From Oricola indica (lineage in GTDB: Bacteria > Pseudomonadota > Alphaproteobacteria > Rhizobiales > Rhizobiaceae), in assembly GCF_019966595.1 (NCBI RefSeq), contig NZ_JAINFJ010000015.1:1-61071 (forward strand): 61,071 nt of DNA. The letters run 5' to 3'. Position numbers and translations under genes: made by a program. The notes beneath the pieces were generated by a model, which had not been told where the DNA came from, made no database searches, and saw nothing but the letters and a program-made list of their open reading frames with translations. Numbering within the stretch: position 1 is the stretch's first letter; each line of letters starts with the position of its first letter. Positions 5,974 through 39,098 of the stretch are shown piece by piece.

Positions 5974-5987
5974 CTAACTACCGTTCG
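5974..5987. promoter_or_regulatory. Operator-like palindrome, site A
   Basis: CTAAC-TACC-GTTCG with AT-rich flanks, in the divergent promoter region between mcl1 (minus) and the enoyl-CoA hydratase (plus). It is one of at least eight such sites at operon starts across the window. Confidence 0.6.
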
Positions 5988-6042
5988 ATTTTAAGTTCGT
6001 AAACCCCTTTGGCGTTTTGCCACCATCATGAAAGGCAGCCAT

Positions 6043-6813
6043 ATGGCCTTGGTGCTTCTTGAACGTCCCGCCCCGCATGTCGCGCTTCTTCGTCTCAACC
6101 GGACGGAAGCGCGCAATGCCCTGAGCCCGGAACTTCGGGTGGAGCTTCGAGACCATTTTCTTACCTTGTCGGATGACCGCGATTGCAGGGCGATCGTCAT
6201 CACCGGGAACGAAAAGGCTTTTGCCGCCGGTGCCGATATAAAGGCCATGGCCGACATCTCGCCAGCCGAGATCATGGCGCAAGACGACGAAACCAACTGG
6301 GCCGCGATCCGGCACTGCCGCAAACCCATCATAGCTGCGGTACAAGGTTACGCACTCGGAGGCGGTTGCGAACTGGCGATGTGTTGCGACCTGATCGTCG
6401 CAGGCGAAAGCGCCCGATTCGGTCAGCCAGAGGTGAAACTGGGCATCATGCCCGGTGCCGGCGGTACGCAACGCCTTGTCCGGGCCATCGGCAAGCATCG
6501 CGCCATGCGGCTGCTACTGACTGGAGCCATGATGGATGCCGACGAGGCCTTTTCCGCAGGATTGATTACCAAGGTCGTCCCTGACGAGCAGGTTGTTTCG
6601 GACGCCATTTCCATTGCCGCGGAGATCGCGGAAATGCCGCCGCTTGCTGTTTCAGAGATCAAGCAGGTGGTTCTTGCCGGCGTCGACGCGCCACTCGATA
6701 CAGCCATCATGCTGGAGCGCCGAGCCGCCTATATGCTCTTCGGAACCGAGGACAAAAAGGAGGCCATGACGGCCTTTATTGAGAAAAGAACCCCCAACTT
6801 TTCAGGGCGTTAG
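6043..6813 (+). CDS. Enoyl-CoA hydratase (crotonase family)
   Basis: A 256-residue crotonase. Both catalytic glutamates expected in true hydratases are present: in GGGCELAMCCD and in GQPEVKLGIMPGAGGTQRL. The oxyanion-hole segment is FAAGADIKAM. It hydrates trans-2-enoyl-CoA to 3-hydroxyacyl-CoA. The ATG at 6043 (MALVLLERP) is favoured because AAAGG precedes it; the ATG at 6028 has no ribosome site. It diverges from the mcl1 operon and precedes the ABC transporter operon on the same strand, separated by a second operator-like site. It is the only crotonase of the four in the window with an intact pair of glutamates. Confidence 0.88.
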   Translation: MALVLLERPAPHVALLRLNRTEARNALSPELRVELRDHFLTLSDDRDCRAIVITGNEKAFAAGADIKAMADISPAEIMAQDDETNWAAIRHCRKPIIAAVQGYALGGGCELAMCCDLIVAGESARFGQPEVKLGIMPGAGGTQRLVRAIGKHRAMRLLLTGAMMDADEAFSAGLITKVVPDEQVVSDAISIAAEIAEMPPLAVSEIKQVVLAGVDAPLDTAIMLERRAAYMLFGTEDKKEAMTAFIEKRTPNFSGR

Positions 6814-6856
6814 TCAAATCACCGGTGAAACTCGTCAGCGGATGATGACAAATTTT

Positions 6857-6870
6857 CGAACAGGTGTTAG
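6857..6870. promoter_or_regulatory. Operator-like palindrome, site B
   Basis: CGAAC-AGGT-GTTAG, the reverse complement of the CTAAC-N4-GTTCG form, 49 bases before the leader ORF of the livG operon. It probably controls the transporter genes. Confidence 0.6.
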
Positions 6871-6918
6871 AGTTTTGAAATCCCAGCACCGGCAAGGTGC
6901 GGGATACGGGAGGAAAAG

Positions 6919-6975
6919 ATGAAGACTTGCAAGAATATGCTCCACCGCATGCCGGCACTGGGTCAAGCAGGCTGA
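6919..6975 (+). CDS. 18-residue leader peptide ORF upstream of livG
   Basis: A short frame (MKTCKNMLHRMPALGQAG, TGA at 6973-6975) starts behind a strong GGGAGGAAAAG ribosome site. It ends one base before the livG ATG at 6977, which has no good ribosome site of its own. This layout fits translational coupling or a leader peptide that sets livG expression. It could instead be an extended 5' region with no translated product. The peptide resembles nothing I know. Confidence 0.45.
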   Translation: MKTCKNMLHRMPALGQAG

Positions 6976-6976
6976 C

Positions 6977-7756
6977 ATGCTGGACATCGAGGACATTCAG
7001 CTCTCCTTCGGCGGAGTGAAGGCCCTTTCGGGCGTCACGGTCAACGCCGAGACCGGCATGATCACATCCGTGATCGGACCGAACGGCGCAGGCAAGACGA
7101 GTCTTTTCAACGTCATTTCGGGTTTTTATCGTCCCCAGAAGGGCCGCGTGACGCTGGCCGGCGAGGATATCTCGTCGCTGAAGCCGCATCAGCGCGCCTA
7201 TCGCGGCATGGCCCGCACGTTTCAGAATATCGCCCTGTTCCATGGCATGACCGTCGCCGACAACATCAAGCTCGGCGCACACACACACCTCAAGAGCGGC
7301 ATCCTGTCGGCTGGCCTGCGCCTGCCCTCCACCCGCAACGAGGAAGCCAACCTGGACAAGGAAGCCGACGAAATCATTGACCTGCTTGAACTCGACAAGG
7401 TCCGCAACGATCAGGTCGAGGACCTCGCCTACGGGCTTCAAAAGCGCGTCGAGATGGCCCGTGCGCTCATCATGCGCCCGAAAATCCTTCTGCTCGACGA
7501 GCCGGTGGCGGGCATGAACCGCGAGGAAAAAAGCGAAATGAGCCGCTTTGTCCTGCGGGTCAAGAATGACCTCAACACCACGGTTCTGCTAATCGAGCAC
7601 GACATGAGCATGGTCATGGGCATCTCCGACGCGATCGTCGTGTTGTCGTTCGGACAACCAATCGCGTCGGGCACGCCCGACGAAGTCCGCAATAATCCCG
7701 ACGTCATCAAGGCCTATCTCGGCTCTGTCGACGAAACCACGCAGAACGCGGCTTGA
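6977..7756 (+). CDS. livG: Branched-chain amino acid-type ABC transporter ATPase
   Basis: A 259-residue ATPase of the LivG subgroup. Walker A is GPNGAGKT at residues 34-41, the Q-loop is in ARTFQNIALF, the signature is the LivG-style variant AYGLQKR near 151-157, and Walker B is LLLDEP at 171-176, followed by IEHDMSMVM. It powers the importer made of LivH, LivM, LivF and the periplasmic binding protein encoded next to it. HAAT-family importers also carry aromatic acids, urea and other carboxylates. In a CoA-catabolic cluster the cargo is probably the pathway substrate. Translation appears coupled to the leader ORF just upstream. Confidence 0.92.
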   Translation: MLDIEDIQLSFGGVKALSGVTVNAETGMITSVIGPNGAGKTSLFNVISGFYRPQKGRVTLAGEDISSLKPHQRAYRGMARTFQNIALFHGMTVADNIKLGAHTHLKSGILSAGLRLPSTRNEEANLDKEADEIIDLLELDKVRNDQVEDLAYGLQKRVEMARALIMRPKILLLDEPVAGMNREEKSEMSRFVLRVKNDLNTTVLLIEHDMSMVMGISDAIVVLSFGQPIASGTPDEVRNNPDVIKAYLGSVDETTQNAA

Positions 7757-7766
7757 GGAGGACACG

Positions 7767-8648
7767 GTGAGCCCACTTCAGTTGTTCATCGAATACTCGA
7801 TCGTCGGCATCGCGGCGGGCGGCATCTATGCCCTCATCGCGCTCGGCATCATCGTTATCTTCAAGGCATCGCATACCTTCAACTTCGCCATGGGCGAGAT
7901 GATGATGTTGTCGGCCTATTTCTTTTATGCCGCCTCTGTAACTTTCGCGCTTGGCCCCGCCCTCGGCCTGATCGTCGCCATGATCGGTTCGATCATCGTT
8001 GCATTGATCATTGAGCGCGTCGCAATCCGCCCCATGCTTGGCCGCCCCTTCATCGCCGTTGTCATGGTCACATTCGGCATCGGCTCGATTCTGCGCGGCA
8101 TCGTCGGCATGGTCTGGGGGCCGAACGAGGTCCAGATTCCGTCCATCCTGTCACGCTCACCCATTTTCCTTGGCGACATCTTTGTCCCGGGCAAGACCGC
8201 ACGCGGCTTCGCCATTGCCGTCATCCTCGTCGTCGCCCTGATCGCGTATTTGCGCTTCTCACGCGCTGGCGTGGCATTGCGCGCAGCAGCCGAAAGCGCC
8301 ACCACCGCCTATTCGATGGGTATCAACGTGCGCAATGTCGTCGCTTTCGCCTGGGTTATCGCCGCCATTACCGGCTGCATCAGCGGCGTCTTGATGGCCA
8401 ACATCAATACACTAACCCCGCATCTCGGACTGGTCGCGCTCAATGTGCTGTCCGTTGTCATTCTCGGCGGCTTGAGTTCGATCAGCGGAGTTCTCGTGGC
8501 CGGGCTGATCATTGGCTGGCTTGAGGCGATCACCGGCCTCTATCTGCCGACCGAATTCCGCGAAATCACGCCATATGTGCTCGTTCTGATCGTACTCCTC
8601 GTCCGGCCGACCGGCCTGTTCGGCGCCAAGGAGGTCGAGAGAATCTGA
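7767..8648 (+). CDS. livH: Branched-chain amino acid-type ABC permease
   Basis: A 293-residue inner-membrane permease of the LivH type with about eight hydrophobic segments and the family feature GGIYALIALGIIVIFKASHT near the N-terminus. It ends in LVRPTGLFGAKE, typical for these permeases. The start is GTG at 7767 behind GAGGAGG. The stop overlaps the livM ATG by one base (TGATG), so the two permeases are translationally coupled. Confidence 0.92.
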   Translation: MSPLQLFIEYSIVGIAAGGIYALIALGIIVIFKASHTFNFAMGEMMMLSAYFFYAASVTFALGPALGLIVAMIGSIIVALIIERVAIRPMLGRPFIAVVMVTFGIGSILRGIVGMVWGPNEVQIPSILSRSPIFLGDIFVPGKTARGFAIAVILVVALIAYLRFSRAGVALRAAAESATTAYSMGINVRNVVAFAWVIAAITGCISGVLMANINTLTPHLGLVALNVLSVVILGGLSSISGVLVAGLIIGWLEAITGLYLPTEFREITPYVLVLIVLLVRPTGLFGAKEVERI

Positions 8649-9688
8649 TGAGCAGTGCAATCGACCAGTCGTCCATCATGCCCGCCAAGAAAGCCAGTTA
8701 CGTGACAGACAACCGCCTGTGGCTCGTTATCTTCATTGTCGCCCTCGCCGGATTGCCCTTTGCGCTGCCCGGTTACTGGATCTTTTTCGCCGGCCTGCTC
8801 GGCATCAACATCATCGCGTCCCACGGCCTGAACATCATGATGGGTTATACAGGTCTGTTGTCGCTCGGACATGGAGCGTTCGTCGGCGTCGGCGCATATA
8901 CGGTTGCGATTCTCCAGACAAATTTCGACTTGCCGTTCTGGATCACCATTCCGCTGGCGGGCATCATCGCCACGGTAATCGGTATCGCTTTCGGCCTGCC
9001 GTCGCTGCGCATTCGCGGACTTTACCTGGTCATCGCCACGCTTGCCGCCCAGTTCATCCTCTACTTCATTTTCGTGCACTGGGAATCGGTAACAAACAGC
9101 GATGTCGGCCTGTCCGTCGCTCCGGCTGAAATCTTCGGCTACCAGTTCAACACCGAGACCCGGATCTACTATTTCATCCTGGCTTTCGTGATCGCCTCGA
9201 CGATATTTGCGCGCAACGTCATCCGGTCGCGTGTCGGACGCGCCTTCATCGCCATTCGCGAACGCGACCTCACTGCACAGGTCCTCGGCGTCGAGATCGT
9301 CTGGTACAAGCTGCTGTCTTTCGGGCTCGGCTCTTTCTATGCCGGCATTGCGGGCGCGCTGCTCGCCTATTTCAACCGCTTTGTGAATCCCGAGCAATTC
9401 GAGCTCATGCTTTCGGTCTTTTTCCTGTCGGCGGTCATCGTCGGCGGAATGGGATCGATCCTCGGAGCAATACTTGGCGCTGTCTTTGTCACGCTCCTGC
9501 CGGAATTTCTCAGGGAGGCCTCGCTGCTTGCCGCCCATGGTCTCGGCATCGACCTTTCGTCCATCCTGACGCCCCTGCGCGAAACCATTTTCGGGCTCAT
9601 CATAGTTGGCTTCCTGATCCTCGAACCGCGCGGCCTTGCCCATCTGTGGCAAAGAGCGCGCCGAAAATTCTCGCGTGCACGCGCGTGA
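8648..9688 (+). CDS. livM: Branched-chain amino acid-type ABC permease
   Basis: A 346-residue permease of the LivM type. It shows the conserved YTGLLSLGHGAFVGVGAYT segment, the loop RSRVGRAFIAIRERD with LTAQVLGVEI that contacts the ATPase, and a C-terminus LILEPRGLAHLW. It forms the membrane channel with LivH. A hydrophilic N-terminal tail of about 20 residues precedes the first membrane segment. Start overlap with livH indicates one transcript. Confidence 0.92.
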   Translation: MSSAIDQSSIMPAKKASYVTDNRLWLVIFIVALAGLPFALPGYWIFFAGLLGINIIASHGLNIMMGYTGLLSLGHGAFVGVGAYTVAILQTNFDLPFWITIPLAGIIATVIGIAFGLPSLRIRGLYLVIATLAAQFILYFIFVHWESVTNSDVGLSVAPAEIFGYQFNTETRIYYFILAFVIASTIFARNVIRSRVGRAFIAIRERDLTAQVLGVEIVWYKLLSFGLGSFYAGIAGALLAYFNRFVNPEQFELMLSVFFLSAVIVGGMGSILGAILGAVFVTLLPEFLREASLLAAHGLGIDLSSILTPLRETIFGLIIVGFLILEPRGLAHLWQRARRKFSRARA

Positions 9689-9760
9689 AGAATCCTTGCC
9701 GAGCGGAGGCTGGCAAGAAACTTGGCCGCGATCGATCGATCGCAGATTGTGGAGGAAGTA

Positions 9761-10960
9761 ATGCTCAAAAGACGTACATTTCTGAAGGCGGCAGGTACCG
9801 CAACAGCACTTAGCTCGATCGGGTTCCCCCGCCTTGCCAACGCGCAGTCGGACAACCTGAACTGGTTCGTCAACTCCGACCTGTCCGGGCCGGCAGCCTA
9901 TTCCAGCGCGGCGGAAGCCGAAGGCATTCAGGATTTCGTTGACTGGATCAACGCCTCCGGTGGCGTCGGTGGCCGCCAGATCAGCCTGACCGTGAAGGAC
10001 ACCGGCTTCAAGCCTGCCGTCAGCGTCGCCAACTTCAACCAGGCCGTCGCCGCCGGCCGGCTGGACTACGTCTATGCCGACAGCACGGGCATGGTTCAGG
10101 CCGTTTCTCCCGAGAACAACACCACGCACAAGATCTTCATGGGCGGCGGCTCCCATGCGTCTGAACTGGCCGATCCGGGAAACTACCCCTACTACATCGT
10201 CAACGGAGCGACCTATCGCCAGCAGATGGTTGCGCTGGTCCAGCACGTCGCCGACACGCAGGGAAACGATGCAAAACTGGCAATCGTTCACTCCAGCATT
10301 TCGTTCGGGCGTGACGGAGTCGACGCTGCCGTGGCTGCAGCGGAAGAACTCGGCGTCGAGGTTGTTCTGGTCCAGCAGACCAGTTTCATTGAAACGGACG
10401 TCAGTGCCTTTGCGCTCGCCATCCGCCAGGCTCAGCCCACTCACGTGATCTTCCATGGTTATGCCATGGCTGTCTGGCCCGAGATCGTGCGCCTCGTACG
10501 CGACTACGGCATGGATGACGTGGTCTTTATGGGCACGCTTTGGCAGAACGAACGCGAAAAGATCATGGAACTCGGCGATATCGCCGATGGCCTGATCGGC
10601 GTTGCCGTCGTCAACATCCGGACCGAGGGTGCCGAAGGCGAGATGCTCAAGGTCATCGACGGCATCCAGCGGGAAAAAGACCCGAACTACACAGGCTATC
10701 TGAAGATCGGCTATGTCGACGGCTGGCTCGACGCGATGCTGGCGGCCAAGGCCACCGAAATGGTCATGGAGGCCGGTGAGGAGGTCAATGGCGACAATCT
10801 CATCAAGGCCGTGACCTCGCTTAAGGATTGGGACACGGGCGGCATCATTGAAACACCCGTGACCTTCAAGAACAATGCGATCGGCCTGGTTCGCGTGTTC
10901 GAGTGGAAGAAGGACGGCTGGGTGCCGGAACCCGTCTCCGACTGGATGCTGATGGACTAA
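9761..10960 (+). CDS. ABC transporter substrate-binding protein, Tat-exported
   Basis: A 399-residue periplasmic binding protein of the LivK-like (type I PBP) family. The start at 9761 follows GGAGGAAG at good spacing. The N-terminus KRRTFLKAAG is a twin-arginine signal followed by a hydrophobic stretch and a probable cleavage after ANAQ, so it is likely exported folded by Tat. The mature protein starts NLNWFVNSDLSGPAA and contains GGVGGRQISL and VYADSTGMVQAV. It delivers the substrate to LivHMGF. The ligand cannot be read from sequence. Confidence 0.9.
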   Translation: MLKRRTFLKAAGTATALSSIGFPRLANAQSDNLNWFVNSDLSGPAAYSSAAEAEGIQDFVDWINASGGVGGRQISLTVKDTGFKPAVSVANFNQAVAAGRLDYVYADSTGMVQAVSPENNTTHKIFMGGGSHASELADPGNYPYYIVNGATYRQQMVALVQHVADTQGNDAKLAIVHSSISFGRDGVDAAVAAAEELGVEVVLVQQTSFIETDVSAFALAIRQAQPTHVIFHGYAMAVWPEIVRLVRDYGMDDVVFMGTLWQNEREKIMELGDIADGLIGVAVVNIRTEGAEGEMLKVIDGIQREKDPNYTGYLKIGYVDGWLDAMLAAKATEMVMEAGEEVNGDNLIKAVTSLKDWDTGGIIETPVTFKNNAIGLVRVFEWKKDGWVPEPVSDWMLMD

Positions 10961-11070
10961 ACCGTTCCCTGTTTCTCCGGAAACCGGACAACGGCGTAAC
11001 CCATTGAATTAAAAGCGCATTCTGGCTTTGCCATATCGGCGAAGCCGGAATTGCTCCAGGAAGCAACGCC

Positions 11071-11811
<741 letters not shown>

Positions 11812-11937: not shown

Positions 11938-12678
11938 TTAATAAAGCGTGATGCCCATCGAACGACCGCCATCAAGCGCCAAAATCTGACCAGTGACGTT
12001 CTTCGTGCGCGGGCTCGCGAAGAAGGCGATGCCATTGGCGATATCTTCCGGCTGGCCGATTTCCTTTGTCGGCTGCTTGGCAATCAGCTCCTGCTGCCGC
12101 TCCGGCGTCAAAGAACGGAACATCTCGGTTTCGATCAGGCCCGGCGCGACGCTGTTGACCAGAATCCCCCGTCCCGCCAGATCGATGGCCATGGCGCGTG
12201 TCAGGCCGATGGAACCAGCTTTCGACGTGATGTAGGGCGCATGCGCATAACCGGCGAGATAGGCCCGAGACGCCACATTGATGATGCGCGCGCCGCGCTC
12301 CATCTGTTTTGCCGCCTCCTGTGCCATGACGAAAGAGCCGATGACATTGACCTCGTACATCTTGCGGAAGTCGTCCTCGGTCACCTCGTCGAACTTACCG
12401 TCCCAGAAAATCGCCGCGTTGTTGACCAGCACGTCGATACGGGGAAACGACGACGTCAGGGCTGCGACAGCAGCGCGGTCCGTCACCGACAAAACATGAT
12501 GCTCGACCGAGTTGCTTGCAGCCCGCAGCTCGTCCGCATTGGCGGTGAGCGGATCCGGGTTCACATCGAGCATGACGACATGAAAACCGTCTTCCAGCAG
12601 TCTCTTCGTCGTTGCCAGACCGATCCCACGCCCTGCCCCGGTAACGAGAGCGACTTCCTTTTCACTTGTCATTTCCAC
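11938..12678 (-). CDS. SDR-family NAD(P)-dependent oxidoreductase
   Basis: A 246-residue short-chain dehydrogenase. It has the nucleotide-binding TGAGRGIG motif near residue 13, the NNAA motif, and the active site YITSK with an upstream Ser in NVASR. Asp in MLDVNPD after the second beta strand suggests NAD rather than NADP. It probably oxidises a hydroxyl on a CoA ester or free intermediate. It is the last gene of a five-gene leftward operon with a crotonase, CoA ligase and two more SDRs. Substrate unknown. Confidence 0.88.
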   Translation of the reverse strand: MEMTSEKEVALVTGAGRGIGLATTKRLLEDGFHVVMLDVNPDPLTANADELRAASNSVEHHVLSVTDRAAVAALTSSFPRIDVLVNNAAIFWDGKFDEVTEDDFRKMYEVNVIGSFVMAQEAAKQMERGARIINVASRAYLAGYAHAPYITSKAGSIGLTRAMAIDLAGRGILVNSVAPGLIETEMFRSLTPERQQELIAKQPTKEIGQPEDIANGIAFFASPRTKNVTGQILALDGGRSMGITLY

Positions 12679-12684
12679 TAACTC

Positions 12685-13470
12685 CTAAGCCGCATCCACA
12701 GGCAGCATGAAAGTTTCGGTCAGGCCGCCATCCACGACGAGGACGTGGCCGTTCATGTAGCTCGATGCCTTCGACACCATGAAGGCGACGACACCACCGG
12801 CCTCTTCAGGATCACCCCAGCGGCCAAGCGGAATGCGGCTCGACACGCCTTTCTCATATCCCGGCCGTGCCAGGATCGTGGTGTTGATCTCCGTCAGGAA
12901 ATAGCCGGGCGCCATCATGTTGACGGTCACGCCCCTCCCGCCAAGTTCGGCAGCCATGGCCCGCGTCATGCCGGCAAGACCATGCTTGCTCGACACATAG
13001 GCGGTAACGTTCTCCCGCCCCACGACGGCAAGCGCCGAGCCGATATTGACGATGCGGCCATAACCCTTCTCGGTCATATGGCGCGCCGCCTCCCGGCAGA
13101 GCAGATAGGGCGCGCGCACATTGGTCCCCATCACCCGGTCCCAGGTCGCCGTCGTCGCTTCGGCGAGCGGCTCCCAGGCGTTAATACCGGCATTGTTGAC
13201 GAGGATATCGAGGCGTCCCTCCGCCTCGGCGATTTCGTTGATTGCAGCAACGCAAGCTTCGCCATCGGACAGGTCGAACGCACGCACATCGATATCGTGC
13301 CCTTCGGCGCGCAGCTTTGCCGCCGACTCTTCGAGTTGCTCCTTGCCGCGTGCGGTAATCCAGACCTTGGCACCGGACTCGGCGATGGCCTTGGCCATTT
13401 CGTAACCGAGGCCACGCGAGGCGCCCGTCACGATGGCAACCTGCCCTTTGAGCGAAAACCGTTCCGTCAT
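12685..13470 (-). CDS. SDR-family oxidoreductase
   Basis: A 261-residue short-chain dehydrogenase with TGASRGLG (residue 14 on), NNAG, Ser in NIGSALAVV and the active site YVSSK. ITARGKEQ after strand two fits NADP binding (Arg in place of Asp), so its cofactor may differ from the 11938-12678 paralogue. It closely resembles the adjacent 13483-14268 SDR in layout (both have MAPGYFLTEIN-like segments), suggesting an old tandem duplication. It is the fourth gene of the leftward operon. Confidence 0.88.
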   Translation of the reverse strand: MTERFSLKGQVAIVTGASRGLGYEMAKAIAESGAKVWITARGKEQLEESAAKLRAEGHDIDVRAFDLSDGEACVAAINEIAEAEGRLDILVNNAGINAWEPLAEATTATWDRVMGTNVRAPYLLCREAARHMTEKGYGRIVNIGSALAVVGRENVTAYVSSKHGLAGMTRAMAAELGGRGVTVNMMAPGYFLTEINTTILARPGYEKGVSSRIPLGRWGDPEEAGGVVAFMVSKASSYMNGHVLVVDGGLTETFMLPVDAA

Positions 13471-13482
13471 GATCGCCCCTCC

Positions 13483-14268: not shown

Positions 14269-14293
14269 GAAAACCTCCTCCTTGTTCGTCTTT

Positions 14294-15850: not shown

Positions 15851-15862
15851 GACGGCCCCTCC

Positions 15863-16694: not shown

Positions 16695-16708
16695 CTAACA
16701 CTAGTTAG
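16695..16708. promoter_or_regulatory. Operator-like palindrome, site C
   Basis: CTAAC-ACTA-GTTAG, a perfect inverted repeat of the arms, in the divergent region between the crotonase operon and tetR. This position is where an autoregulating TetR protein would bind. Confidence 0.65.
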
Positions 16709-29422: not shown

Positions 29423-29424
29423 CG

Positions 29425-31186: not shown

Positions 31187-31253
31187 CTCTGCCTTTCAAT
31201 CTTCAACTTAGAATTTCAATTATTTGTCGGTCGTCATGCGGTCCCGCAGTTGC

Positions 31254-32009
31254 TCAGACCATCCAGCGCCCGCCATCGACCACAACGGACTGGCCGGTCA
31301 TGTATCGGGCGTCGTCGCTGCCAAGGAATGCGGCGACGGCTGCGATGTCCTCAGGCTCGGCAAAGTAGCCAAGCGGGATCGAGACCCGGATCTTCTCGAC
31401 GATCTCATCGGAAATGCGCTCGATGACGCGGGTCTTGGTCACACCCGGACAGACCGCGTTCACATTGACCTTGAACGGTGCAAGTTCGCGCGCCAGCGAA
31501 CGTGTAAAGCCGATAACGCCCATCTTGGCGGCGGCGTACTCGCTGATTCCCACCTCACCGGCCAGACCGGCATTCGACGCAACATTGACGATCTTGCCGC
31601 GCCCGGCCTCACGCATCGACGGCACGACCTGACGGGACGCCAGCAGCGTTGAGAAGAGCGAGACGTCCATCACGAAATGCCAGACATCGGAATTGGACTG
31701 GTAAAACTCCGAGGCTCGCTCGCGGGCACTCTGCCCGACATTGTTCATCAGCAGATCGATGAACCCGGCGTCCGCATAGATTTCCTTGAAGGTATCGACG
31801 AGAAAATCTTCTTTGGTGCAATCGCCAGCCTTGGTGAAAACCTTCGCACCGCCCTTGCGTGCCTCCTCGGCGACCGCCTCAAGCCCGTCGGCCTCCAGAT
31901 CCATGATCGCCAGATTTGCGCCCTCGGACGCAAAACGCAGCGCGGAAGCGCGCCCGATACCGTTAGCTGCCCCGGTAACGACAGCAAGCCTACCCTCAAG
32001 ACGACGCAT
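31254..32009 (-). CDS. SDR-family oxidoreductase
   Basis: A 251-residue short-chain dehydrogenase with TGAANGIGRASALRFA, MNNVGQSARERA, Ser in NVASNAGLAG and the active site YAAAK. Asp in IMDLEADG suggests NAD. The ATG at 32009 follows GGAGGA at good spacing; the longer frame would start in the promoter. It is the first gene of the operon running to 24479, with operator site E 98 bases upstream. It may oxidise an alcohol before CoA activation. Confidence 0.88.
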   Translation of the reverse strand: MRRLEGRLAVVTGAANGIGRASALRFASEGANLAIMDLEADGLEAVAEEARKGGAKVFTKAGDCTKEDFLVDTFKEIYADAGFIDLLMNNVGQSARERASEFYQSNSDVWHFVMDVSLFSTLLASRQVVPSMREAGRGKIVNVASNAGLAGEVGISEYAAAKMGVIGFTRSLARELAPFKVNVNAVCPGVTKTRVIERISDEIVEKIRVSIPLGYFAEPEDIAAVAAFLGSDDARYMTGQSVVVDGGRWMV

Positions 32010-32106
32010 GACATTTTCCTCCTCGAATTTCCTCCCGGTCGCGGCGTCTTCGCGCAGGCTGTCGGCCCGTTGTTTGAGCGCCACCGTCATCCGGTTCGAT
32101 TAAAAA

Positions 32107-32120
32107 CTAACAATTGTTCG
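32107..32120. promoter_or_regulatory. Operator-like palindrome, site E
   Basis: CTAAC-AATT-GTTCG with AAAA on the left and AAAG on the right, 98 bases before the first gene (ATG at 32009) of the long SDR/MaoC/thiolase operon. Confidence 0.6.
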
Positions 32121-32180: not shown

Positions 32181-33119
32181 TCATCCCGGTGGCGGCACAG
32201 CGGAAGCAGGGCGCGGACGGATCGTCGAGATGGCAACGCCGGTCAGCACCAGAATGACGCCGGCAGCGGATTGCAGCGTTAAAGGCTCACCGAGAAAAAT
32301 CGTGCCACATCCAACGGCAACAGCCGGCACAAGGTAGTTGTTGTAGGACGTTACGGCAGGCCCTGCGCGCGACACTGTGATGAACAGGAGCAAGCTACCG
32401 GCCGCCGTGTTCCAGAGCGCGAGAACCAGCAGCGCTCCGAGAATTCCTGGCGATGGCAATGTCTGGGGAACACCATCGAAAAGCAGCGCCGCCGTCATCG
32501 TCCAGATTGCCGCCGACGTCAGCGAATACGTCGCAACAGTCACCGAGTTGTGGTGCCGAACCAGCGAGACGACGAACAGCGACGCCGAAAAGGTGATAGC
32601 CGCCCCCATGGCCGCGAGAAGCCCGCGCATGTCGTCTCCGAACGATGCGAACGCATCCAGGCCGAACAGAACGACAATACCGGCCAGTCCGACGAAAACG
32701 CCGAACAGGGCCCTGACTGTCGGATATACACCGCGAAACATGCCGAAGATCACAGTGATGACCGGCACCAGTGCCAGCGCAGTCGCCGTCACGGACGAGT
32801 CGACATACATCACCGAAGTGCTGATGAAACAGAGCGGCGCGGCGTTGGACATCAGCCCGACTAGCACAAAGGCGGCGATGTCCCGACGCGAAAGCCGCGG
32901 CAGCCTGCGCCGTGCAGCCAGGAAGCAAAGCAGGATCGATGATGCGATGAGCGTGCGAAGCGCAATCAGCGTAAATGGCGGCAAGGCCTCGACCGCGATC
33001 TTCGAAAACATGAACGACGTGCCCCATGCAAAGCTCAGCACGGCAAGCAAGCCAAACTCCGCAGCACCAAGCGTGGGGTTCTCTCCCCTCGCTCTGGCGG
33101 CAGCATCCGCGCTGGACAT
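32181..33119 (-). CDS. EamA (DMT) family transporter
   Basis: A 312-residue inner-membrane protein with about ten hydrophobic segments in two EamA repeats (LSFAWGTSFMFSKIAVEALP in the first, YNNYLVPAVAVGCGTIFLGE in the second). DMT exporters carry metabolites or drugs out of the cell. Placed inside the regulon, it may export an intermediate or relieve substrate toxicity. It is a single-gene leftward unit diverging from an NmrA-like gene across operator site F. Confidence 0.88.
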   Translation of the reverse strand: MSSADAAARARGENPTLGAAEFGLLAVLSFAWGTSFMFSKIAVEALPPFTLIALRTLIASSILLCFLAARRRLPRLSRRDIAAFVLVGLMSNAAPLCFISTSVMYVDSSVTATALALVPVITVIFGMFRGVYPTVRALFGVFVGLAGIVVLFGLDAFASFGDDMRGLLAAMGAAITFSASLFVVSLVRHHNSVTVATYSLTSAAIWTMTAALLFDGVPQTLPSPGILGALLVLALWNTAAGSLLLFITVSRAGPAVTSYNNYLVPAVAVGCGTIFLGEPLTLQSAAGVILVLTGVAISTIRPRPASAVPPPG

Positions 33120-33143: not shown

Positions 33144-33157
33144 CGAACATCTGTTAG
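33144..33157. promoter_or_regulatory. Operator-like palindrome, site F
   Basis: CGAAC-ATCT-GTTAG in the 84-base gap between the divergent EamA and NmrA-like genes. Read on the other strand it is CTAAC-AGAT-GTTCG. Confidence 0.6.
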
Positions 33158-33203: not shown

Positions 33204-34091
33204 ATGACCCGACGGGTTCTCGTAACAGGCGCCACTGGAACGGTGGGCGGCGCGGCACTCCGCCAGCTCAAAGGTGACGCGGATGGTGGAAAGCTGACCG
33301 TTCTCGGCGCATCGCGGAGCGAAAAAGGCGCCGCGAAACTGCAGGACGGCGGTTTCGAGCCGGTTCACATGGATTTCGACAAGCCCGAAAGACTGCGGCC
33401 GGCCCTGCGTGGCGTGGACAGCGTGTTTCTGGTCACCGGCTACACAGTTGACATGCTGGTGCAGTCCAAGCGCCTGCTGGACGCCGCGAAAGCCGAAGGC
33501 GTAAAGCATATCGTCCATCTCGGCGCGCTTGCCGCCGACGACACGCCGCATGCGCATTTCGCCTGGCATCAAATGGTCGAGCGCACCATCGAGGCGATGG
33601 GCTTCGACTGGACGCATCTGCGGCCCAACTTCTTCATGGATACGATCTGGGAGGGCTTCCGCCGGCGCCCGGACCGGCTTGTCCACTTCATCGGGGACCG
33701 CGCCGGTTCTTTCGTCTCAGCCGATGACATGGGCGCCGTGGCAGCGGCGGCACTAAGCGACCCCGATACACATAAGGGCAAGACTTATCCGCTGGCCGTT
33801 GAAGCCATGCCCTTCGCGGAGGTTGCGAAAATCTTCTCGGAAGTCACCGGGCGATCGGTGGAATACCGCCCTCGCCCCGCGTCCAGCCTGTTCGAAACCA
33901 TGACCCGGCAAGGCGCCGAACCCGTCTACGCAAAGAGTTTAGCCGAAGGAATCGCCGCCATCGAGGACGGCCAACTGCCGCTTGCCGATGCAGTCTATGA
34001 TACAGTCGAGACCGTAACCGGCCGCAAAGGCATAGGCTGGAAGGAATATGCGGAAGCGCGACTGGATCAACTGCCGGCAGCCAATGCATAG
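33204..34091 (+). CDS. NmrA-like NAD(P)-binding protein
   Basis: A 295-residue atypical SDR of the NmrA/TMR type: N-terminal VLVTGATGTVGGAALRQL dinucleotide site, VFLVTGYTVDM, HLGALAADDTPHAHFAWHQM and YRPRPASSLFET. Such proteins reduce quinones or isoflavones, or sense the NADP/NADPH ratio. The start follows GGGAGGAAAAC. It stands alone between operator site F and the terminator at 34101-34127. Its link to the CoA pathway is by location only. Confidence 0.83.
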   Translation: MTRRVLVTGATGTVGGAALRQLKGDADGGKLTVLGASRSEKGAAKLQDGGFEPVHMDFDKPERLRPALRGVDSVFLVTGYTVDMLVQSKRLLDAAKAEGVKHIVHLGALAADDTPHAHFAWHQMVERTIEAMGFDWTHLRPNFFMDTIWEGFRRRPDRLVHFIGDRAGSFVSADDMGAVAAAALSDPDTHKGKTYPLAVEAMPFAEVAKIFSEVTGRSVEYRPRPASSLFETMTRQGAEPVYAKSLAEGIAAIEDGQLPLADAVYDTVETVTGRKGIGWKEYAEARLDQLPAANA

Positions 34092-34170: not shown

Positions 34171-35304
34171 CTATAATGTCCGGCCGATCAGTTCCTTCAT
34201 GATTTCGTTGGTGCCGGCATATATCCGCTGCACGCGCGCGTCGGCATAGGCACGAGTGATCGGATACTCCCACATGAAGCCATAACCGCCGTGCAATTGC
34301 AGCAGCACGTCGAGAACCTTGCCCTGCATCTCACTGGTCCAGAGCTTCACCATTGCCGCTGTTGTCGTATCGAGTTTACCATCCAGAACCAGTTCGAGAC
34401 AGCGATCGAGAAAAACACGTCCAACCTGAATCTCTGTCTTCATCTCGGCCAAAGTGAATCGCGAATTCTGGAAATCCAGAACCGGTTTTCCAAAGGCCTT
34501 GCGGTTGCGTGTATAGTCGAGGGTCCACTCCAGCGCCGCCTCGCAGCAGGATATAGCCTGAATGCCGACATGCATCCGTTCCCAGGCGAGTTCCTGCATC
34601 ATATAACCGAAGCCCTTGCCCTCCTCGCCGATCAGGTTGGAGGCCGGCACGCGCACCTCGTTGAAAAACAACTCCGATGTGTCCTGCGCCTTGGTGCCCA
34701 ACTTCTTCAAACGACGGCCGCGCTCGAAACCTGGCCGGTCGGTTTCCACGACAATCAGGCTGATACCTTTCGCTCCCTGAGACCGATCCGTCTTGCAGGC
34801 GACCAGAAACAGATCGGCGGTCTGACCGTTGGTGATGAACGTCTTCTGGCCGGAGATGACATATTCATCGCCGTCACGCGTCGCCGTCGTACGAATCGCT
34901 TGAAGATCGGAGCCCCCGCCCGGTTCGGTCATCGCTATGCCGGCGACATAGTCCCCCGAAGTCATCTTCGGTAACCAGCGCTGCTTTTGCTCGGCCGTAC
35001 CGTAATGATCGAAATAGGGAGCAACGATGTCGGAATGCAACGCAAAGCCGAGACCGGTCAAATTCAGCCGCGCCTGCTCTTCCATCAGGATAATCGAATA
35101 GCGCCGATCGGCACCGACTCCGCCTGATTCCTCTGGAATCGCCGCGCAAAGGAAACCCTGTTCGCCGGCCTTTTTCCAGGCCCAGCGAGGCACTTCCCCT
35201 TTCTCTTCCCACTCCTCGTGGTGGGGGGCGAGTTCTTCCATGAAACGTCGAACAGATTCCCTGAAGATTTCATGTTCTTCGGAAAACAGCGAGCGCGGAA
35301 CCAT
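34171..35304 (-). CDS. Acyl-CoA dehydrogenase
   Basis: A 377-residue acyl-CoA dehydrogenase with AMTEPGGGSDLQAIRT, GQKTFITNGQTADL and RKAFGKPVLDFQNSRFTLAE. The C-terminal base motif reads IYAGTNEIMKE, lacking the YEGT Glu, as in the long-chain/FadE-like bacterial subgroup where Glu sits in another helix. It is transcribed alone, divergently from the NIPSNAP gene, with operator site G in the shared promoter. It is the fourth intact acyl-CoA dehydrogenase of the window. Confidence 0.9.
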   Translation of the reverse strand: MVPRSLFSEEHEIFRESVRRFMEELAPHHEEWEEKGEVPRWAWKKAGEQGFLCAAIPEESGGVGADRRYSIILMEEQARLNLTGLGFALHSDIVAPYFDHYGTAEQKQRWLPKMTSGDYVAGIAMTEPGGGSDLQAIRTTATRDGDEYVISGQKTFITNGQTADLFLVACKTDRSQGAKGISLIVVETDRPGFERGRRLKKLGTKAQDTSELFFNEVRVPASNLIGEEGKGFGYMMQELAWERMHVGIQAISCCEAALEWTLDYTRNRKAFGKPVLDFQNSRFTLAEMKTEIQVGRVFLDRCLELVLDGKLDTTTAAMVKLWTSEMQGKVLDVLLQLHGGYGFMWEYPITRAYADARVQRIYAGTNEIMKELIGRTL

Positions 35305-35370: not shown

Positions 35371-35384
35371 CTAACAATCGTTTG
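35371..35384. promoter_or_regulatory. Operator-like palindrome, site G
   Basis: CTAAC-AATC-GTTTG followed by ATTTT, in the divergent region between the acyl-CoA dehydrogenase and the NIPSNAP-family gene. Confidence 0.55.
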
Positions 35385-35439: not shown

Positions 35440-35751
35440 ATGATCATCGAAAAACGCACATACACCTTCCACCCCGGCAAAGTGCAGGAGTTTCTCGAGC
35501 TTTACGAACGCGAAGGCCTCCCGCTCCACACAAAGTACCTTCCACTGGCCGGATATTTCGTTTCCGATATCGGAACGTTGAACCAGGTGATCACGATGTG
35601 GCGCTATGAATCGATGGCGGACCGGGAGGAAAAGCGCGCGGCGCTATATGCGGATCCGGAATGGACGGCTTTCGCCCCCAAGACGACGCACATGATCCAG
35701 AAAATGGAAACGACGATCCTGCGACCGACGCCTTGGTCGCCTTTGAACTGA
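35440..35751 (+). CDS. NIPSNAP-family protein
   Basis: A 103-residue dimeric alpha/beta-barrel protein. It starts MIIEKRTYTFHPGKVQEFLE and has the typical GYFVSDIGTLNQVITMWRYE block. The ATG at 35440 follows AGGAGGAAACCC. NIPSNAP proteins have no firmly known reaction; in bacteria they often sit in catabolic clusters. It diverges from an acyl-CoA dehydrogenase. Confidence 0.88.
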   Translation: MIIEKRTYTFHPGKVQEFLELYEREGLPLHTKYLPLAGYFVSDIGTLNQVITMWRYESMADREEKRAALYADPEWTAFAPKTTHMIQKMETTILRPTPWSPLN

Positions 35752-35781: not shown

Positions 35782-36993
35782 TCAGGCGATAACGCGCCTT
35801 TTCTTCAAGTCCGCAATCTCGTCGTTAGCCAAGCCCAAACGACTAAGCACTCGATCCGTGTCCTCGCCAGTAAGCGGCGCGCGTCGTGACACTCCACCGG
35901 GTGTGGCGGTCATGCGTATCGGCGAAGCCGCTATCGTGACAGGCTGTTCGGTTCCTGGATTTTCGACATCAACCAACATCTCGCGAGCGGCGATGTGCGG
36001 ATCGGCATAGATATCGGCAGCGGTATTCACCGGACCAAAGGGGACACGTAGCCCCAGCGCTTCCGATATCTCGGCCTTGGTACGCGTTCTGGTCCACTCC
36101 TCGACGATCGCGACAGTTTCTTCGCGATGGGCGAGACGGTCGTTGTTGGTGGCAAATTTCGGGTCCGCCGCCAGTTCCGGCCGACCGATGATAGTGACCA
36201 GGTCAACCCAGAAACTGTCGCGCGGGCAGCCGATCGTGACCTGACCGTCCTTTGCAGTGAACACCCCGAACGGACACAAAATCGGGTGCTGGTTGCCCTC
36301 CGGGACAGGCGACTTTCCTGAATAGGAGTACTGGTAGACGATACGCTCGCACAACGCGACGACAGCATCATACATCGCGACATCCACGAACTGCCCCTGC
36401 CCCGTCCGCACGGTATGATGGTAGGCAGCGAGAATACCAAACGCGCTCATCGCTGCGGGGAAGATGTCGCCGATGCCCGGACCAAGCTTGATCGGTGTGT
36501 GCGCGTCGGGGCCGGTTATACCCATCGCGCCACCCATGGCCTGGGCGACCACGTCAAAAGCCGGTCGGTCGATATAGGGGCTGGCGCCTGTTCTGGGGTC
36601 GCCGAAACCGCGGATCGCCGCATACACCAACCTGGGATTGACCTCCGAGAGCGTTTCGTAGCCGACACCCAGCCTATCCATCACGCCCGCACGGAAATTC
36701 TCGACCAGTATGTCGGCGTCTTCGACGAGCTTTATAAGGAGGTCTTTGCCTTCGGGCGACTTGAGGTCGATACCTATGCTCATTTTGTTGCGGTTGGTGC
36801 TCTGGAAGTAACCGCCGAAATGGCGATCGGTGTCACCTTCCTGGAACGGCCCAAAGGAACGCGTTGGGTCGCCCGCAATGGGCTCGATCTTGATGACTTC
36901 GGCCCCTTGGTCTGCCAGCATCATTGTACAATACGGACCGGCGAGCATTTGCGTGAGGTCAATGACCCGGGTGCCAGCGAGAGCTCCGCCCAT
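35782..36993 (-). CDS. CaiB/BaiF family III CoA-transferase
   Basis: A 403-residue family III CoA-transferase with [20 protein letters not shown] at the N-terminus, [27 protein letters not shown] and the catalytic Asp region [16 protein letters not shown]. It moves CoA from a donor ester to an acid without ATP. It follows etfA with a one-base gap as the last gene of the etf operon, so electron transfer and CoA transfer are co-expressed. Donor and acceptor are unknown. Confidence 0.92.
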
Positions 36994-36994
36994 C

Positions 36995-37924
36995 TTACAG
37001 CGCCTTTTCGAGTTCCGGCAGCACGTCGAAGAGATCCGCCACCAGGCCGTAATCGGCGACCTGGAAGATCGGCGCCTCGTCGTCCTTGTTGATGGCGACG
37101 ATGACCTTGGAGTCCTTCATCCCGGCCAGGTGCTGGATCGCTCCCGAGATGCCGCAGGCGATGTAGAGTTCCGGCGCCACCACCTTGCCAGTCTGGCCGA
37201 CCTGCCAGTCGTTCGGCGCGTAACCGGCATCGACGGCGGCGCGCGAGGCGCCGACCGCGGCGCCCAGCTTGTCGGCGACCGGCAGGATGACTTCCTCGAA
37301 CTTCTCCGCCGAACCGAGCGCGCGGCCGCCGGAGATGATGATCTTGGCGGAGGTCAGCTCCGGGCGGTCCGTTTCGGCGATCTTGTTCTCGACGAAGGAG
37401 GACAGGCCCGGATCGGCCGCGGCCGACACCGTGTCGACGGAGGCGGAACCGCCCTCTCCGGCCGCGTTGAACGAGGCCGTGCGCACGGTGATGACGTTCT
37501 TGGCGTCGGTCGCCTGCACGGTCTGGATCGCGTTGCCGGCATAGATCGGCCGCTTGAACGTGTCGGCGGACACCACCTCGATGATGTCGGAGACCTGCAT
37601 CACGTCGAGCAGCGCGGCGACGCGCGGCATGATGTTCTTGCCGTTGGTCGTCGCCGGCGCGACGAAGGTGTCGTAGCCGTCGGCGAGCGAGACGATCAGC
37701 GCGGCCATCGGCTCGGCCAGGTTCTGGTCGAGCGAGGCGTCGTCGGCGAGCAGCACCTTGGCGGCACCGTCGAGCTTGGCAGCCGCGTCGGCCGCGGGCT
37801 TCGCGCCCTTGCCGGCCACCAGCACATGCACGTCGCCGCCCATTGCGGCTGCCGCGCTCATCGCCTTCGCGGTCTGGTCCGACAGGGTCTCGTTGTCGTG
37901 TTCGGCAATCAGAAGGATTGTCAT
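36995..37924 (-). CDS. etfA: Electron transfer flavoprotein alpha subunit
   Basis: A 309-residue EtfA. The FAD-binding C-terminal domain shows [48 protein letters not shown] and [19 protein letters not shown]. With EtfB it accepts electrons from acyl-CoA dehydrogenases and hands them to ETF-quinone oxidoreductase, which is not in the window. A plasmid-borne copy probably serves the acyl-CoA dehydrogenases encoded nearby. The etf genes look richer in GC than their neighbours, hinting at separate origin. Confidence 0.95.
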
Positions 37925-37943
37925 TGTCTTTTTCTCCCCGTCC

Positions 37944-38693
37944 TTAGAGTACGCCGGCTTCGTTCTTCAGCTTGTCGACCAGTTCCGCGACGTCGGCGAC
38001 TTTCACGCCGGCCTTGCGGCCTTCCGGCTCCTCGGTCTTGAGCACCTTCAGGCGCGGCGCGGTGTCGACTCCGTAATCGCCGGGGGCCTTCTCGTCGAGC
38101 GGCTTCTTCTTGGCCTTCATGATGTTCGGCAGCGAGGCGTAGCGCGGCTGGTTCAGCCGCAGGTCGGTCGTCACGATGGCCGGCATCTTGAGCTCGATGG
38201 TCTGCAGACCGCCGTCGATCTCGCGGGTCACCTTGGCGCTGTCGCCCTCGATCTTGACCTCGGAGGCGAACGTGCCCTGGCTCCAGCCCGTCAGGGCGGC
38301 GAGCATCTGGCCGGTCTGGTTGGCGTCGTCGTCGATCGCCTGTTTGCCGAGGATCACCAGCCCCGGCTGCTCATCCTCGACCACGCCCTTCAGGATCTTC
38401 GCGACGGCGAGCGGCTCGGTCACGTCGTCGGTCTTGACCAGGATGCCGCGGTCGGCGCCCATCGCCAGCGCGGTGCGGATCGTCTCCTGCGCTTGGCTCG
38501 GGCCGATCGAGACCGCGACGATCTCGGAGACCGTGCCCGCTTCCTTCAGCCGGATCGCCTCCTCGACGGCGATCTCGTCGAACGGGTTCATGCTCATCTT
38601 CACGTTCGCCAGTTCGACGCCCGAACCGTCCGCCTTCACGCGTGCCTTCACGTTATAGTCAATCACCCGCTTGACCGGGACGAGTACTTTCAT
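37944..38693 (-). CDS. etfB: Electron transfer flavoprotein beta subunit
   Basis: A 249-residue EtfB beginning [20 protein letters not shown], with [36 protein letters not shown] for AMP binding, and [20 protein letters not shown], the recognition-loop region. It pairs with EtfA. Its ATG overlaps the stop of a small 53-codon frame by 4 bases, so its translation is coupled to the upstream small genes. Confidence 0.95.
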
Positions 38694-38851
38694 TCGACCA
38701 TTTCCTTTCCTGCAAATTCAGCCCACCGTTTCCGCTGGGGTTCGGGGTCATAGGTCCTTAAATCCAGACCATTCGCTTGTCCTGCAAGGCAGGCGAGAGC
38801 GGCAAGCGGAGTACAGCTGACACTGCGTAGCGCCTGCGCGCGTAACCTCAT
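38690..38851 (-). CDS. 53-residue ORF coupled to etfB
   Basis: A small frame ([20 protein letters not shown] at the start, [14 protein letters not shown] at the end) with 4-base ATGA overlaps on both sides: with the EthD-like frame upstream and with etfB downstream. Such overlaps suggest a translated coupling gene. I do not recognise the protein; it could be a degraded fragment. No clear ribosome site other than the overlap. Confidence 0.4.
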
Positions 38852-39045
38852 ATCGTTGAATCGATCTCGTAGATCACCTTGTATTCATACGAACTCGAAT
38901 CGGCAAAATGCTGCGTCCCGGAAAGACGGAAGAGCTTCGCGGACGTAACGCCGGTGAGCTTCAGCACATCAGCCAGATGAATATTCGTGTACCAGTCCCT
39001 GAATGGATCTTCCTCACCGGGTTTCGCATTCGTGAAAGCAAGCAG
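38848..39045 (-). CDS. EthD-like small protein, start unclear
   Basis: A 65-codon frame reading LLAFTNAKPGEEDPFRDWYT, then NIHLADVLKLTGVTSAKLFR and YEYKVIYEID, which resembles EthD/DUF4286-type dimeric alpha/beta-barrel proteins. An in-frame TGA lies directly before the first codon, so the only possible start is CTG at 39045. GGAGGAG sits 18 bases upstream, too far for ideal use. The family is usually near 100 residues, so this copy is short. It may be partly degraded, or start at CTG. It follows operator site H and leads into etfB. Confidence 0.45.
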   Translation of the reverse strand: MLAFTNAKPGEEDPFRDWYTNIHLADVLKLTGVTSAKLFRLSGTQHFADSSSYEYKVIYEIDSTI

Positions 39046-39084
39046 TCAGTGTTGCAGCGGCTTCTCCTCCAGCGTCGGAAGATT

Positions 39085-39098
39085 CTAACTTCTGTTAG
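39085..39098. promoter_or_regulatory. Operator-like palindrome, site H
   Basis: CTAAC-TTCT-GTTAG, perfect arms, followed by AAAAATG. It lies 40 bases before the EthD-like frame that leads the etfB-etfA-CoA-transferase operon. Confidence 0.62.

What the first reader, a model, noticed from the sequence alone, without database searches (positions are those of the whole stretch)
5974..39098. Recurrent CTAAC-N4-GTTCG/GTTAG palindrome at every operon start, probable TetR regulon
Eight matches (sites A-H at 5974, 6857, 16695, 24423, 32107, 33144, 35371, 39085; all 14 bases) lie in promoter gaps and none was noticed inside a gene. In a common orientation all begin CTAAC and the second arm is GTTCG (A, B, E, F), GTTAG (C, H), GTTCA (D) or GTTTG (G), with AT-rich flanks. 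They precede eight separate transcription units, including divergent pairs. Site C lies in front of tetR. The simplest reading is one TetR-type repressor (16803-17435) controlling the whole catabolic island. The motif is not one that I recognise.
Basis: partly seen in the sequence, partly recalled or inferred. Interest (0 to 1): 0.8.

Follow-up and report, generated by a model that had tools for sequence, protein, structure and literature searches.

The report
One repressor's operators across a catabolic cluster
Eight copies of a short mirror-image DNA word mark the gene starts of one bacterial degradation gene cluster and follow the cluster's own TetR-type switch protein from species to species, so they are almost certainly its binding sites: a well-supported but ordinary kind of gene switch.

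Summary
All eight CTAAC-N4-GTT sites are at the stated places, all between called genes. In the 5.09-Mb genome CTAACN4GTTNG occurs at 9 places: 7 in this 61-kb contig, the other 2 inside reading frames. The 37-kb cluster (1941-38693) recurs, with some genes missing, in the seven closest tetR-bearing genomes of the family examined, most sites in the same gaps. The motif tracks the TetR: 74 of 80 fetched loci with tetR relatives (35-86% identical) carry it, almost only with a 4-base spacer; 10 of 11 tetR-bearing genomes have 6-8 sites near tetR, 15 genomes without a close tetR have 0-3 scattered. None of 12 other TetR-like matches in this genome shares the recognition-helix segment. Best explanation: an autoregulated TetR_C_24-type repressor, probably released by a CoA thioester, controls about 12 promoters. 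The motif has the CNAAC-N4-GTTNG layout of Thermus PaaR and the AAC-N4-GTT core of Pseudomonas PsrA, so the kind is known. Inducer and substrate are unknown. Overlap with a promoter is clear only at site B.

The parts
5974..5987 (+). Site A, CTAACTACCGTTCG, between divergent citE1 (-) and ECH1 (+)
   Evidence: intergenic; a site in the same gap upstream of citE1 in 7 of 7 relatives' clusters
6857..6870 (-). Site B, CTAACACCTGTTCG, before the liv-type ABC transporter operon; overlaps a predicted -10
   Evidence: same place in 12 of 12 relatives; -35/-10-like pair around it
16695..16708 (.). Site C, perfect palindrome CTAACACTAGTTAG, between ECH2 operon (-) and tetR (+)
   Evidence: perfect palindrome in 10 of 13 relatives, the other 3 hold variants in the same gap
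24423..24436 (+). Site D, CTAACAATAGTTCA, before the ECH3 operon (-)
   Evidence: 13 of 13 relatives
32107..32120 (+). Site E, CTAACAATTGTTCG, before the SDR2...ADP-forming acyl-CoA synthetase operon (-)
   Evidence: 7 of 9 relatives
33144..33157 (-). Site F, CTAACAGATGTTCG, between EamA (-) and NmrA-type SDR (+)
   Evidence: 7 of 7 relatives
35371..35384 (+). Site G, CTAACAATCGTTTG, between acyl-CoA dehydrogenase (-) and NIPSNAP (+)
   Evidence: 8 of 9 relatives, all 8 with GTTTG
39085..39098 (.). Site H, perfect palindrome CTAACTTCTGTTAG, 391 bp before the etfB-etfA-CaiB operon (-)
   Evidence: a site within 450 bp of etfB in 2 of 3 relatives that have etfB in the fetched stretch
16803..17435 (+). 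tetR, TetR_N + TetR_C_24 regulator (ATG start; an upstream GTG start at 16782 is also open)
   Evidence: Pfam PF00440, PF17932; AlphaFold2 model, mean pLDDT 87.2, closest to PfmR, then DarR, KstR2, AibR, FadR
1941..5863 (-). operon: CitE-type lyase, mesaconyl-CoA-hydratase-like MaoC, MBL-fold hydrolase, CitE-type lyase
   Evidence: present in relatives
6043..6813 (+). ECH1, enoyl-CoA hydratase family
6977..11811 (+). branched-chain-amino-acid-type ABC transporter operon
11938..16642 (-). operon: ECH2, acyl-CoA ligase, three SDRs
17515..24378 (-). operon: ECH3, acyl-CoA dehydrogenase, acyl-CoA ligase, MmgE/PrpD, SDR, acyl-CoA dehydrogenase
24479..32090 (-). operon: two SDRs, a 138-aa protein without a Pfam match, MaoC, SCP2-type thiolase/aldolase, ChsH2-type OB protein, acyl-CoA dehydrogenase, ADP-forming acyl-CoA synthetase
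32181..33119 (-). EamA-family transporter
33243..34091 (+). NmrA-type SDR
34171..35304 (-). acyl-CoA dehydrogenase
35440..35751 (+). NIPSNAP protein
35782..38693 (-). operon: ETF beta, ETF alpha, CaiB-type CoA transferase

Best explanation
The eight palindromes are operators of the TetR-type protein encoded at 16803-17435. A dimer binds CNAAC-N4-GTTNG (half-sites CTAAC or a near variant) in the gaps before about 12 transcription units of a 37-kb, 37-gene catabolic cluster, including its own gene, and represses them. When a substrate of the pathway is taken up and activated, a CoA thioester made by the cluster's ligases most likely binds the regulator's C-terminal pocket and releases it, inducing the cluster as one unit. 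Shown by computation: the sites, their restriction to this cluster in the genome, their conservation and their co-occurrence with the TetR. Inferred: binding by this TetR, repression rather than activation, autoregulation, a CoA-thioester inducer, and blocking of RNA polymerase. The substrate is not known.
For: Genome-wide: 7 of 9 exact CTAACN4GTTNG sites are in the window, binomial P about 1e-12; the other two are inside reading frames. Position: 8 of 8 window sites are outside called genes; in 77 loci of relatives 166 of 169 sites lie outside called genes that cover 82-94% of the DNA (45/45 close, 85/85 beta, 36/39 distant), and in two annotated plasmids all 6 sites with a CTAAC arm lie in annotated gaps. 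Specificity: in the close, beta and distant locus sets the perfect CTAAC-N4-GTTAG occurs 16, 36 and 29 times; other half-sites of the same letters at most 6 times, other spacers from 0 to 15 at most once. Conservation: sites A-G mostly recur in the same gaps of seven relatives' clusters and six further loci. Link to the TetR: 74 of 80 tetR-relative loci carry the motif; 10 of 11 tetR-bearing genomes have 6-8 sites in the tetR region and 15 genomes without a close tetR have 0-3 scattered; the same motif accompanies tetR relatives beside different gene sets. Uniqueness: none of the 12 other TetR-like matches of this genome holds the recognition-helix segment AGSIYYH. Fold: the model resembles PfmR, KstR2, AibR-isovaleryl-CoA and FadR-stearoyl-CoA.
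Against: No binding or expression data exist here. TetRs of this genome below the search threshold were not examined. One 56%-identical homologue (G062 = L026; L027) has no clustered sites. Six of 80 loci lack the motif; one of them (L028) has a CGAAC...GTTCG variant upstream of tetR. One relative cluster (G133) lacks an exact match at C and G, though a CAAAC...GTTCG variant lies at C (L021, the same region). A Rhodococcus plasmid with a 37% relative has no site. Among all 1024 half-sites some G+C-rich ones form as many or more palindromes in the window, close and beta sets (for example CGCCG 32 against 16 in the close set), so the raw count alone is not decisive there. A general promoter model (GTTAG arm as -10, -35 some 17 bp upstream) failed at group level (p 0.07). 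Foldseek also ranks DarR high (entry titles name c-di-AMP as ligand), so the ligand class is not fixed by fold.
Confidence: 0.9

Rival explanations
1. The sites are operators, but of another DNA-binding protein; the local TetR is merely a neighbour.
For: The cluster and its tetR are found together in the close relatives, so within that group alone the two cannot be separated. Three other TetR_C_24-type matches exist in this genome, one below the curated cut-off.
Against: Distant tetR relatives beside different gene sets carry the same motif; the 12 other TetR-like matches of the genome have other recognition helices; the 15 scanned genomes lacking a close tetR lack the site clusters.
Confidence: 0.05
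2. The TetR works at some of these sites as an activator, or has a mixed role, rather than as a pure repressor.
For: PsrA, with a similar operator, represses its own gene and positively regulates rpoS. Site H lies 391 bp from the next called start. No general overlap with a -10 box could be shown.
Against: Sites A to G end 16-110 bp from the called starts in the window, and site B overlaps a conserved -35/-10-like pair, as expected of a repressor.
Confidence: 0.08
3. The palindromes are chance or a repeat element without a regulatory role.
For: The motif is short, and some G+C-rich palindromes are as frequent.
Against: Shuffles and simulations, genome-wide restriction, fixed spacer, intergenic placement and gap-by-gap conservation across genera.
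Confidence: 0.005

Closest known systems
PaaR (TTHA0973), Thermus thermophilus HB8
   Same: TetR family; published operator 5'-CNAACGNNCGTTNG-3', same half-site CNAAC and same 4-base spacer; sites before phenylacetate-degradation operons including its own gene (passages of PMC6651687). Phenylacetyl-CoA as effector is recalled, not read.
   Different: Inner G and C of the spacer are not conserved here (11 and 17 of 65 sites); the cluster encodes other enzymes; a second consensus AACnAACGTTnGTT was reported for PaaR.
PsrA, Pseudomonas
   Same: TetR family, operator TTCAAACN4GTTTGAA at rpoS and C/GAAAC-N2-4-GTTTG/C in general (passages of PMC13104628): same AAC-N4-GTT core.
   Different: Second base of the arm is A in PsrA sites, T here; the window protein scores 47.8 bits against a cut-off of 300 for the NCBIfam PsrA model. 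Long-chain fatty acids as its cue are recalled.
KstR, Mycobacterium
   Same: Autoregulated TetR repressor of a large lipid-catabolic regulon through one short palindrome in many gaps, overlapping a putative -10 region at its own promoter (passages of PMC1995591).
   Different: Operator TnnAACnnGTTnnA has a 2-base spacer; 31.8 bits against cut-off 280.
BkaR, Mycobacterium
   Same: Autoregulated TetR repressor of a neighbouring CoA-metabolism operon, binds as a dimer (passages of PMC3920632).
   Different: Operator GTTA(N)T(N4)A(N)TAAC: inverted arm order and wider spacing.
MbdR, Azoarcus
   Same: TetR family, represses a CoA-dependent catabolic cluster, released by 3-methylbenzoyl-CoA (passages of PMC4424350); PDB 4uds is a weak sequence relative.
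   Different: Operator ATACN10GTAT.

Membership tests
TetR family, TetR_C_24 (PF17932) | TetR_N and TetR_C_24 domains over the curated cut-offs | tested here: met
   PF00440 58.5 bits (cut-off 24), PF17932 86.9 bits (cut-off 26.4)
TetR family, TetR_C_24 (PF17932) | binds a palindrome in its own promoter as a dimer | not testable with these tools
   a perfect palindrome ends 94 bp before the ATG; binding needs an experiment
PaaR-type operator (CNAACGNNCGTTNG) | outer arms CNAAC-N4-GTTNG | tested here: met
   7 of 8 sites exactly; site D ends in CA
PaaR-type operator (CNAACGNNCGTTNG) | inner G and C of the spacer | tested here: not met
   G at spacer position 1 in 11 of 65 and C at position 4 in 17 of 65 sites of the window and seven relatives
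PaaR orthologue | orthology to TTHA0973 and control of paa genes | not tested
   PaaR sequence was not fetched
PsrA | NCBIfam NF053516 over cut-off | tested here: not met
   47.8 bits, cut-off 300
FadR (Bacillus type) | NCBIfam NF053878 over cut-off | tested here: not met
   63.5 bits, cut-off 200
KstR | NCBIfam NF033703 over cut-off; 2-base operator spacer | tested here: not met
   31.8 bits, cut-off 280; no CTAAC-N2-GTTAG in the window or the three locus sets
CoA-thioester-responsive TetR | released from DNA by a CoA thioester | not testable with these tools
   fold resembles FadR-stearoyl-CoA and AibR-isovaleryl-CoA, but also DarR

The most novel reading that the evidence does not exclude
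This TetR is one of a broad group of regulators in Alpha- and Betaproteobacteria (35-86% identical to it), for which I found no name in the papers searched, that keep one operator word, CTAAC-N4-GTTAG, while governing different CoA-thioester degradation clusters (here one with an aldolase/ChsH2-like module and CitE-like lyases, perhaps for a methyl-branched or alicyclic, terpenoid-like acid). Operators keep their own deviations from the perfect palindrome across genera (perfect at tetR, GTTTG at site G, intact arm towards the operon at B, D and E), so affinities would be graded and selected site by site, with the tightest site at tetR.
Probability: 0.45. Interest if true: 0.5.

Novelty: new member of a known kind. 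Interest (0 to 1): 0.38.

Why it matters
It gives a testable whole-regulon prediction (37 genes, 8 operators, one regulator) for an uncharacterised catabolic cluster, and a DNA word by which clusters of the same regulator group can be found in other Proteobacteria. It also offers a natural series of operators of one regulator with conserved differences, suitable for testing graded repression. It does not introduce a new mechanism.

Tried and rejected
Promoter model: I proposed that the gene-proximal GTTAG arm is an extended -10 with TTGACA 17 bp upstream. In the pooled profile spacer 17 was the best outside the operator itself, but when orthologous sites were averaged per group the effect was weak (p 0.07 over 8 groups); it stands for site B and perhaps E only, so it is not claimed in general.

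A pattern of variant arms that excludes CTAAC (YRAACNNNNGTTYR) gave 41 places genome-wide, against 46 for its reversed control, and only one of them (51543) in the window: arms without the T at position 2 are not enriched here.

Site 51543 (CAAACATTTGTTCG, before an IclR gene) was considered as a ninth operator and set aside: it lacks a CTAAC arm, its IclR gene has no hit in the fetched relatives, and the gap holds other CGAAC/GTTCG-like words.

LiuQ or FadP as the name of the beta relatives was considered; the passages of PMC5343134 give no operator letters, and the family search of L033 shows a carboxylase and HMG-CoA lyase but does not settle it.

Literature: nine searches ran and none listed a paper on this regulon. 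Six papers were seen as passages; all others only as search listings.
Full report
What was checked. All eight reported sites exist at the given coordinates with the given arms. Counting both strands and at most one mismatch to CTAACNNNNGTTNG, the window has 18 matches where dinucleotide-preserving shuffles give 4.96 on average and 11 at most. Of the class CTAAC-N4-GTT[ACT][GA] the window holds 8; 100 order-3 Markov simulations averaged 0.1 and never exceeded 2. A codon-usage gene finder that I wrote% of the window coding and places all eight sites outside genes. The variant at 51543 is also outside genes, that at 42225 inside one.

Genome-wide test. The window is the whole of contig C6 of a 5,093,531-base genome in 42 contigs. 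The exact pattern CTAACNNNNGTTNG occurs at 9 places (11 strand matches; the reversed control pattern has 49): seven are sites A, B, C, E, F, G and H, two lie elsewhere. One of those two lies near the start of a cysteine-desulfurase-like reading frame, the other at the very end of an SDR-like one (the two names are my reading of the translations, not a family search). The chance of 7 or more of 9 falling in this 1.2% of the genome is about 1e-12. Variant arms that exclude CTAAC are not enriched: 41 places against 46 for the control pattern.

Gene content. Pfam and NCBIfam scans show a cluster devoted to CoA thioesters: two CitE-type lyases, a mesaconyl-CoA-hydratase-like protein, an MBL-fold hydrolase, enoyl-CoA hydratases, a branched-chain-amino-acid-type ABC transporter, AMP-forming and ADP-forming acyl-CoA ligases, acyl-CoA dehydrogenases, SDRs, MmgE/PrpD, a MaoC protein with an SCP2-type thiolase and a ChsH2-type OB protein, NIPSNAP, a CaiB-type CoA transferase and both ETF subunits. 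The MaoC, thiolase and OB set resembles the Shy-Sal side-chain hydratase-aldolase pair of bile-acid degraders (abstract starts of PMC11321319 and PMC12329534 in the listing), which suggests a retro-aldol step; the substrate remains unknown.

Units. By my gene calls sites A, C, F and G lie between divergent genes (citE1/ECH1, ECH2/tetR, EamA/NmrA, ACAD4/NIPSNAP); B, D, E and H precede single operons. That makes twelve units and covers the 37 called genes from 1941 to 38693. The enoyl-CoA hydratase and the shortened acyl-CoA dehydrogenase just beyond H (39159-40699) have only 27-36% hits in the seven related clusters, so the conserved cluster ends near H.

Conservation. A search with the TetR in the genome collection found 223 relatives and kept the best 80 loci. 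Among 151 genomes of the same family 12, including the window's own, have a match at E 1e-40 or better; the two same-genus genomes of that sample have none, so the cluster is patchy. In the seven other genomes with the closest matches (G121, G030, G129, G130, G046, G074, G133; all seven were examined) most genes from citE2 to CaiB have a counterpart at 50-96% identity. Not all do: citE2 finds only about 30% hits in four, ECH1 about 35% or less in three, livK is missing in one, MmgE/PrpD in one, and the ETF genes are found in three of seven. Sites were sought upstream of the orthologous genes (at least 60% identical) in these seven and six further loci. Site A recurs upstream of citE1 in 7 of 7, B in 12 of 12, D in 13 of 13, E in 7 of 9, F in 7 of 7, G in 8 of 9, H in 2 of 3. 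At C, 10 of 13 have a perfect palindrome; L030 has CTAACTATTGTTCG, and the other two have CAAACGCTAGTTCG (L021, the region of G133) or CGAACACTAGTTCG (L025) in the same gap. Sites keep their own character: all 8 at G have GTTTG, and at B, D and E the CTAAC arm, read as GTTAG, faces the operon in every relative with a site; at the divergent sites F and G it faces NmrA and ACAD4.

Is it the TetR? Within the close group, tetR and targets travel together, so only distant relatives can separate them. Of the 80 loci, 74 hold at least one CTAACN4GTT[ACT][GA], down to 35% identity, in Burkholderiales, Bradyrhizobium, Rhodopseudomonas and others; many of these loci are near relatives of each other. In the sets of 18 close, 42 beta and 17 distant loci the perfect palindrome occurs 16, 36 and 29 times, against at most 6 for any other half-site of the same letters and at most 1 for any other spacer between 0 and 15; over all 1024 half-sites it ranks first in the distant set, but some G+C-rich palindromes are more frequent in the close and beta sets. 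Of 169 sites in these 77 loci 166 lie outside called genes. Neighbouring genes differ between groups though they share broad families: liv-type transporter, AMP-binding ligases and ETF-QO in Hydrogenophaga, an FMN oxidoreductase, acyl-CoA dehydrogenases and SDRs in a Bradyrhizobium MAG, biotin-carboxylase-type and carboxyltransferase-type proteins (below the curated cut-offs) and an HMG-CoA lyase in a Burkholderiales MAG. Two annotated plasmids (Polaromonas JS666 and Phaeobacter G2) have three sites each with a CTAAC arm, all in annotated gaps; two looser variants in the former are inside genes; a Rhodococcus plasmid with a 37% relative has none.

Presence and absence. Eleven tetR-bearing genomes and 15 of the 139 without a match were scanned for CTAACNNNNGTTMG. 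Ten of the eleven have 6 to 8 distinct sites on the tetR contig within about 45 kb of tetR, plus 0 to 2 elsewhere. The exception, G062, has a 56% homologue and one stray site. The 15 others have 0 to 3 scattered sites each. The homologues of the 56% type (L026, L027) differ in the recognition helix region (YYYFGTKD instead of YYHYKSKD) and showed no such palindrome in 260 bp upstream. Four more distant proteins with YYYFDSK nevertheless have sites, so the helix alone does not explain it.

Other regulators of the genome. A search with the TetR gave 12 further TetR-like matches. None holds the segment AGSIYYH: nine were aligned and the other three read. TetRs below that search's threshold were not examined.

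Mechanism. The AlphaFold2 model (mean pLDDT 87.2) matches PfmR best, then DarR, KstR2, AibR with isovaleryl-CoA and FadR. FadR and AibR entries carry acyl-CoA ligands by their titles, DarR c-di-AMP. With ligases and CoA-dependent enzymes in the cluster, a CoA thioester is the likeliest inducer; this is inference. Repression is inferred from the family and from the short distance to start codons (median 62 bp from site centre in the close loci). A promoter-overlap layout is visible at site B (ATGACA-17-TAGAGT; 5.0 of 6 matches to TTGACA on average in 13 sequences), but a general rule did not hold (p 0.07).

Comparison with known systems. The layout CNAAC-N4-GTTNG is that reported for Thermus PaaR (CNAACGNNCGTTNG) and shares AAC-N4-GTT with PsrA. 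The way it works most resembles KstR and BkaR: an autoregulated TetR repressor with one operator word across a catabolic regulon. It is not a member of PsrA, FadR or KstR by the NCBIfam cut-offs, and PaaR orthology was not tested. Nine literature searches ran (one search failed on syntax) and none listed a paper on this regulon; most subscription papers and the RegPrecise entries themselves are outside that library.

Verdict. It is a new member of a known kind. The conserved differences between operators and the breadth of the regulator group are the more interesting aspects.

Noticed in passing
window 39932-40699 and 41165-41764: An acyl-CoA dehydrogenase matching only the middle and C-terminal domains lies next to a reading frame with an IstB (IS21-type) match just outside the conserved cluster: a possible mobile-element scar at its edge.
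   Followed up: partly
window 51430-51560: The gap before an IclR gene holds several CGAAC/GTTCG-like words and the variant CAAACATTTGTTCG; possibly IclR operators.
   Followed up: no
window 27829-29856: MaoC, SCP2-type thiolase and ChsH2-type OB protein set resembling proteobacterial side-chain hydratase-aldolase pairs; substrate unknown.
   Followed up: partly
L026, L027 and genome G062: A 56%-identical TetR homologue without a nearby operator of this class; perhaps a paralogue with changed specificity.
   Followed up: partly
window 46120-49156: A large DctM-type transporter beside an NMT1-like binding protein: looks like a TAXI-TRAP type transport system outside the cluster.
   Followed up: no
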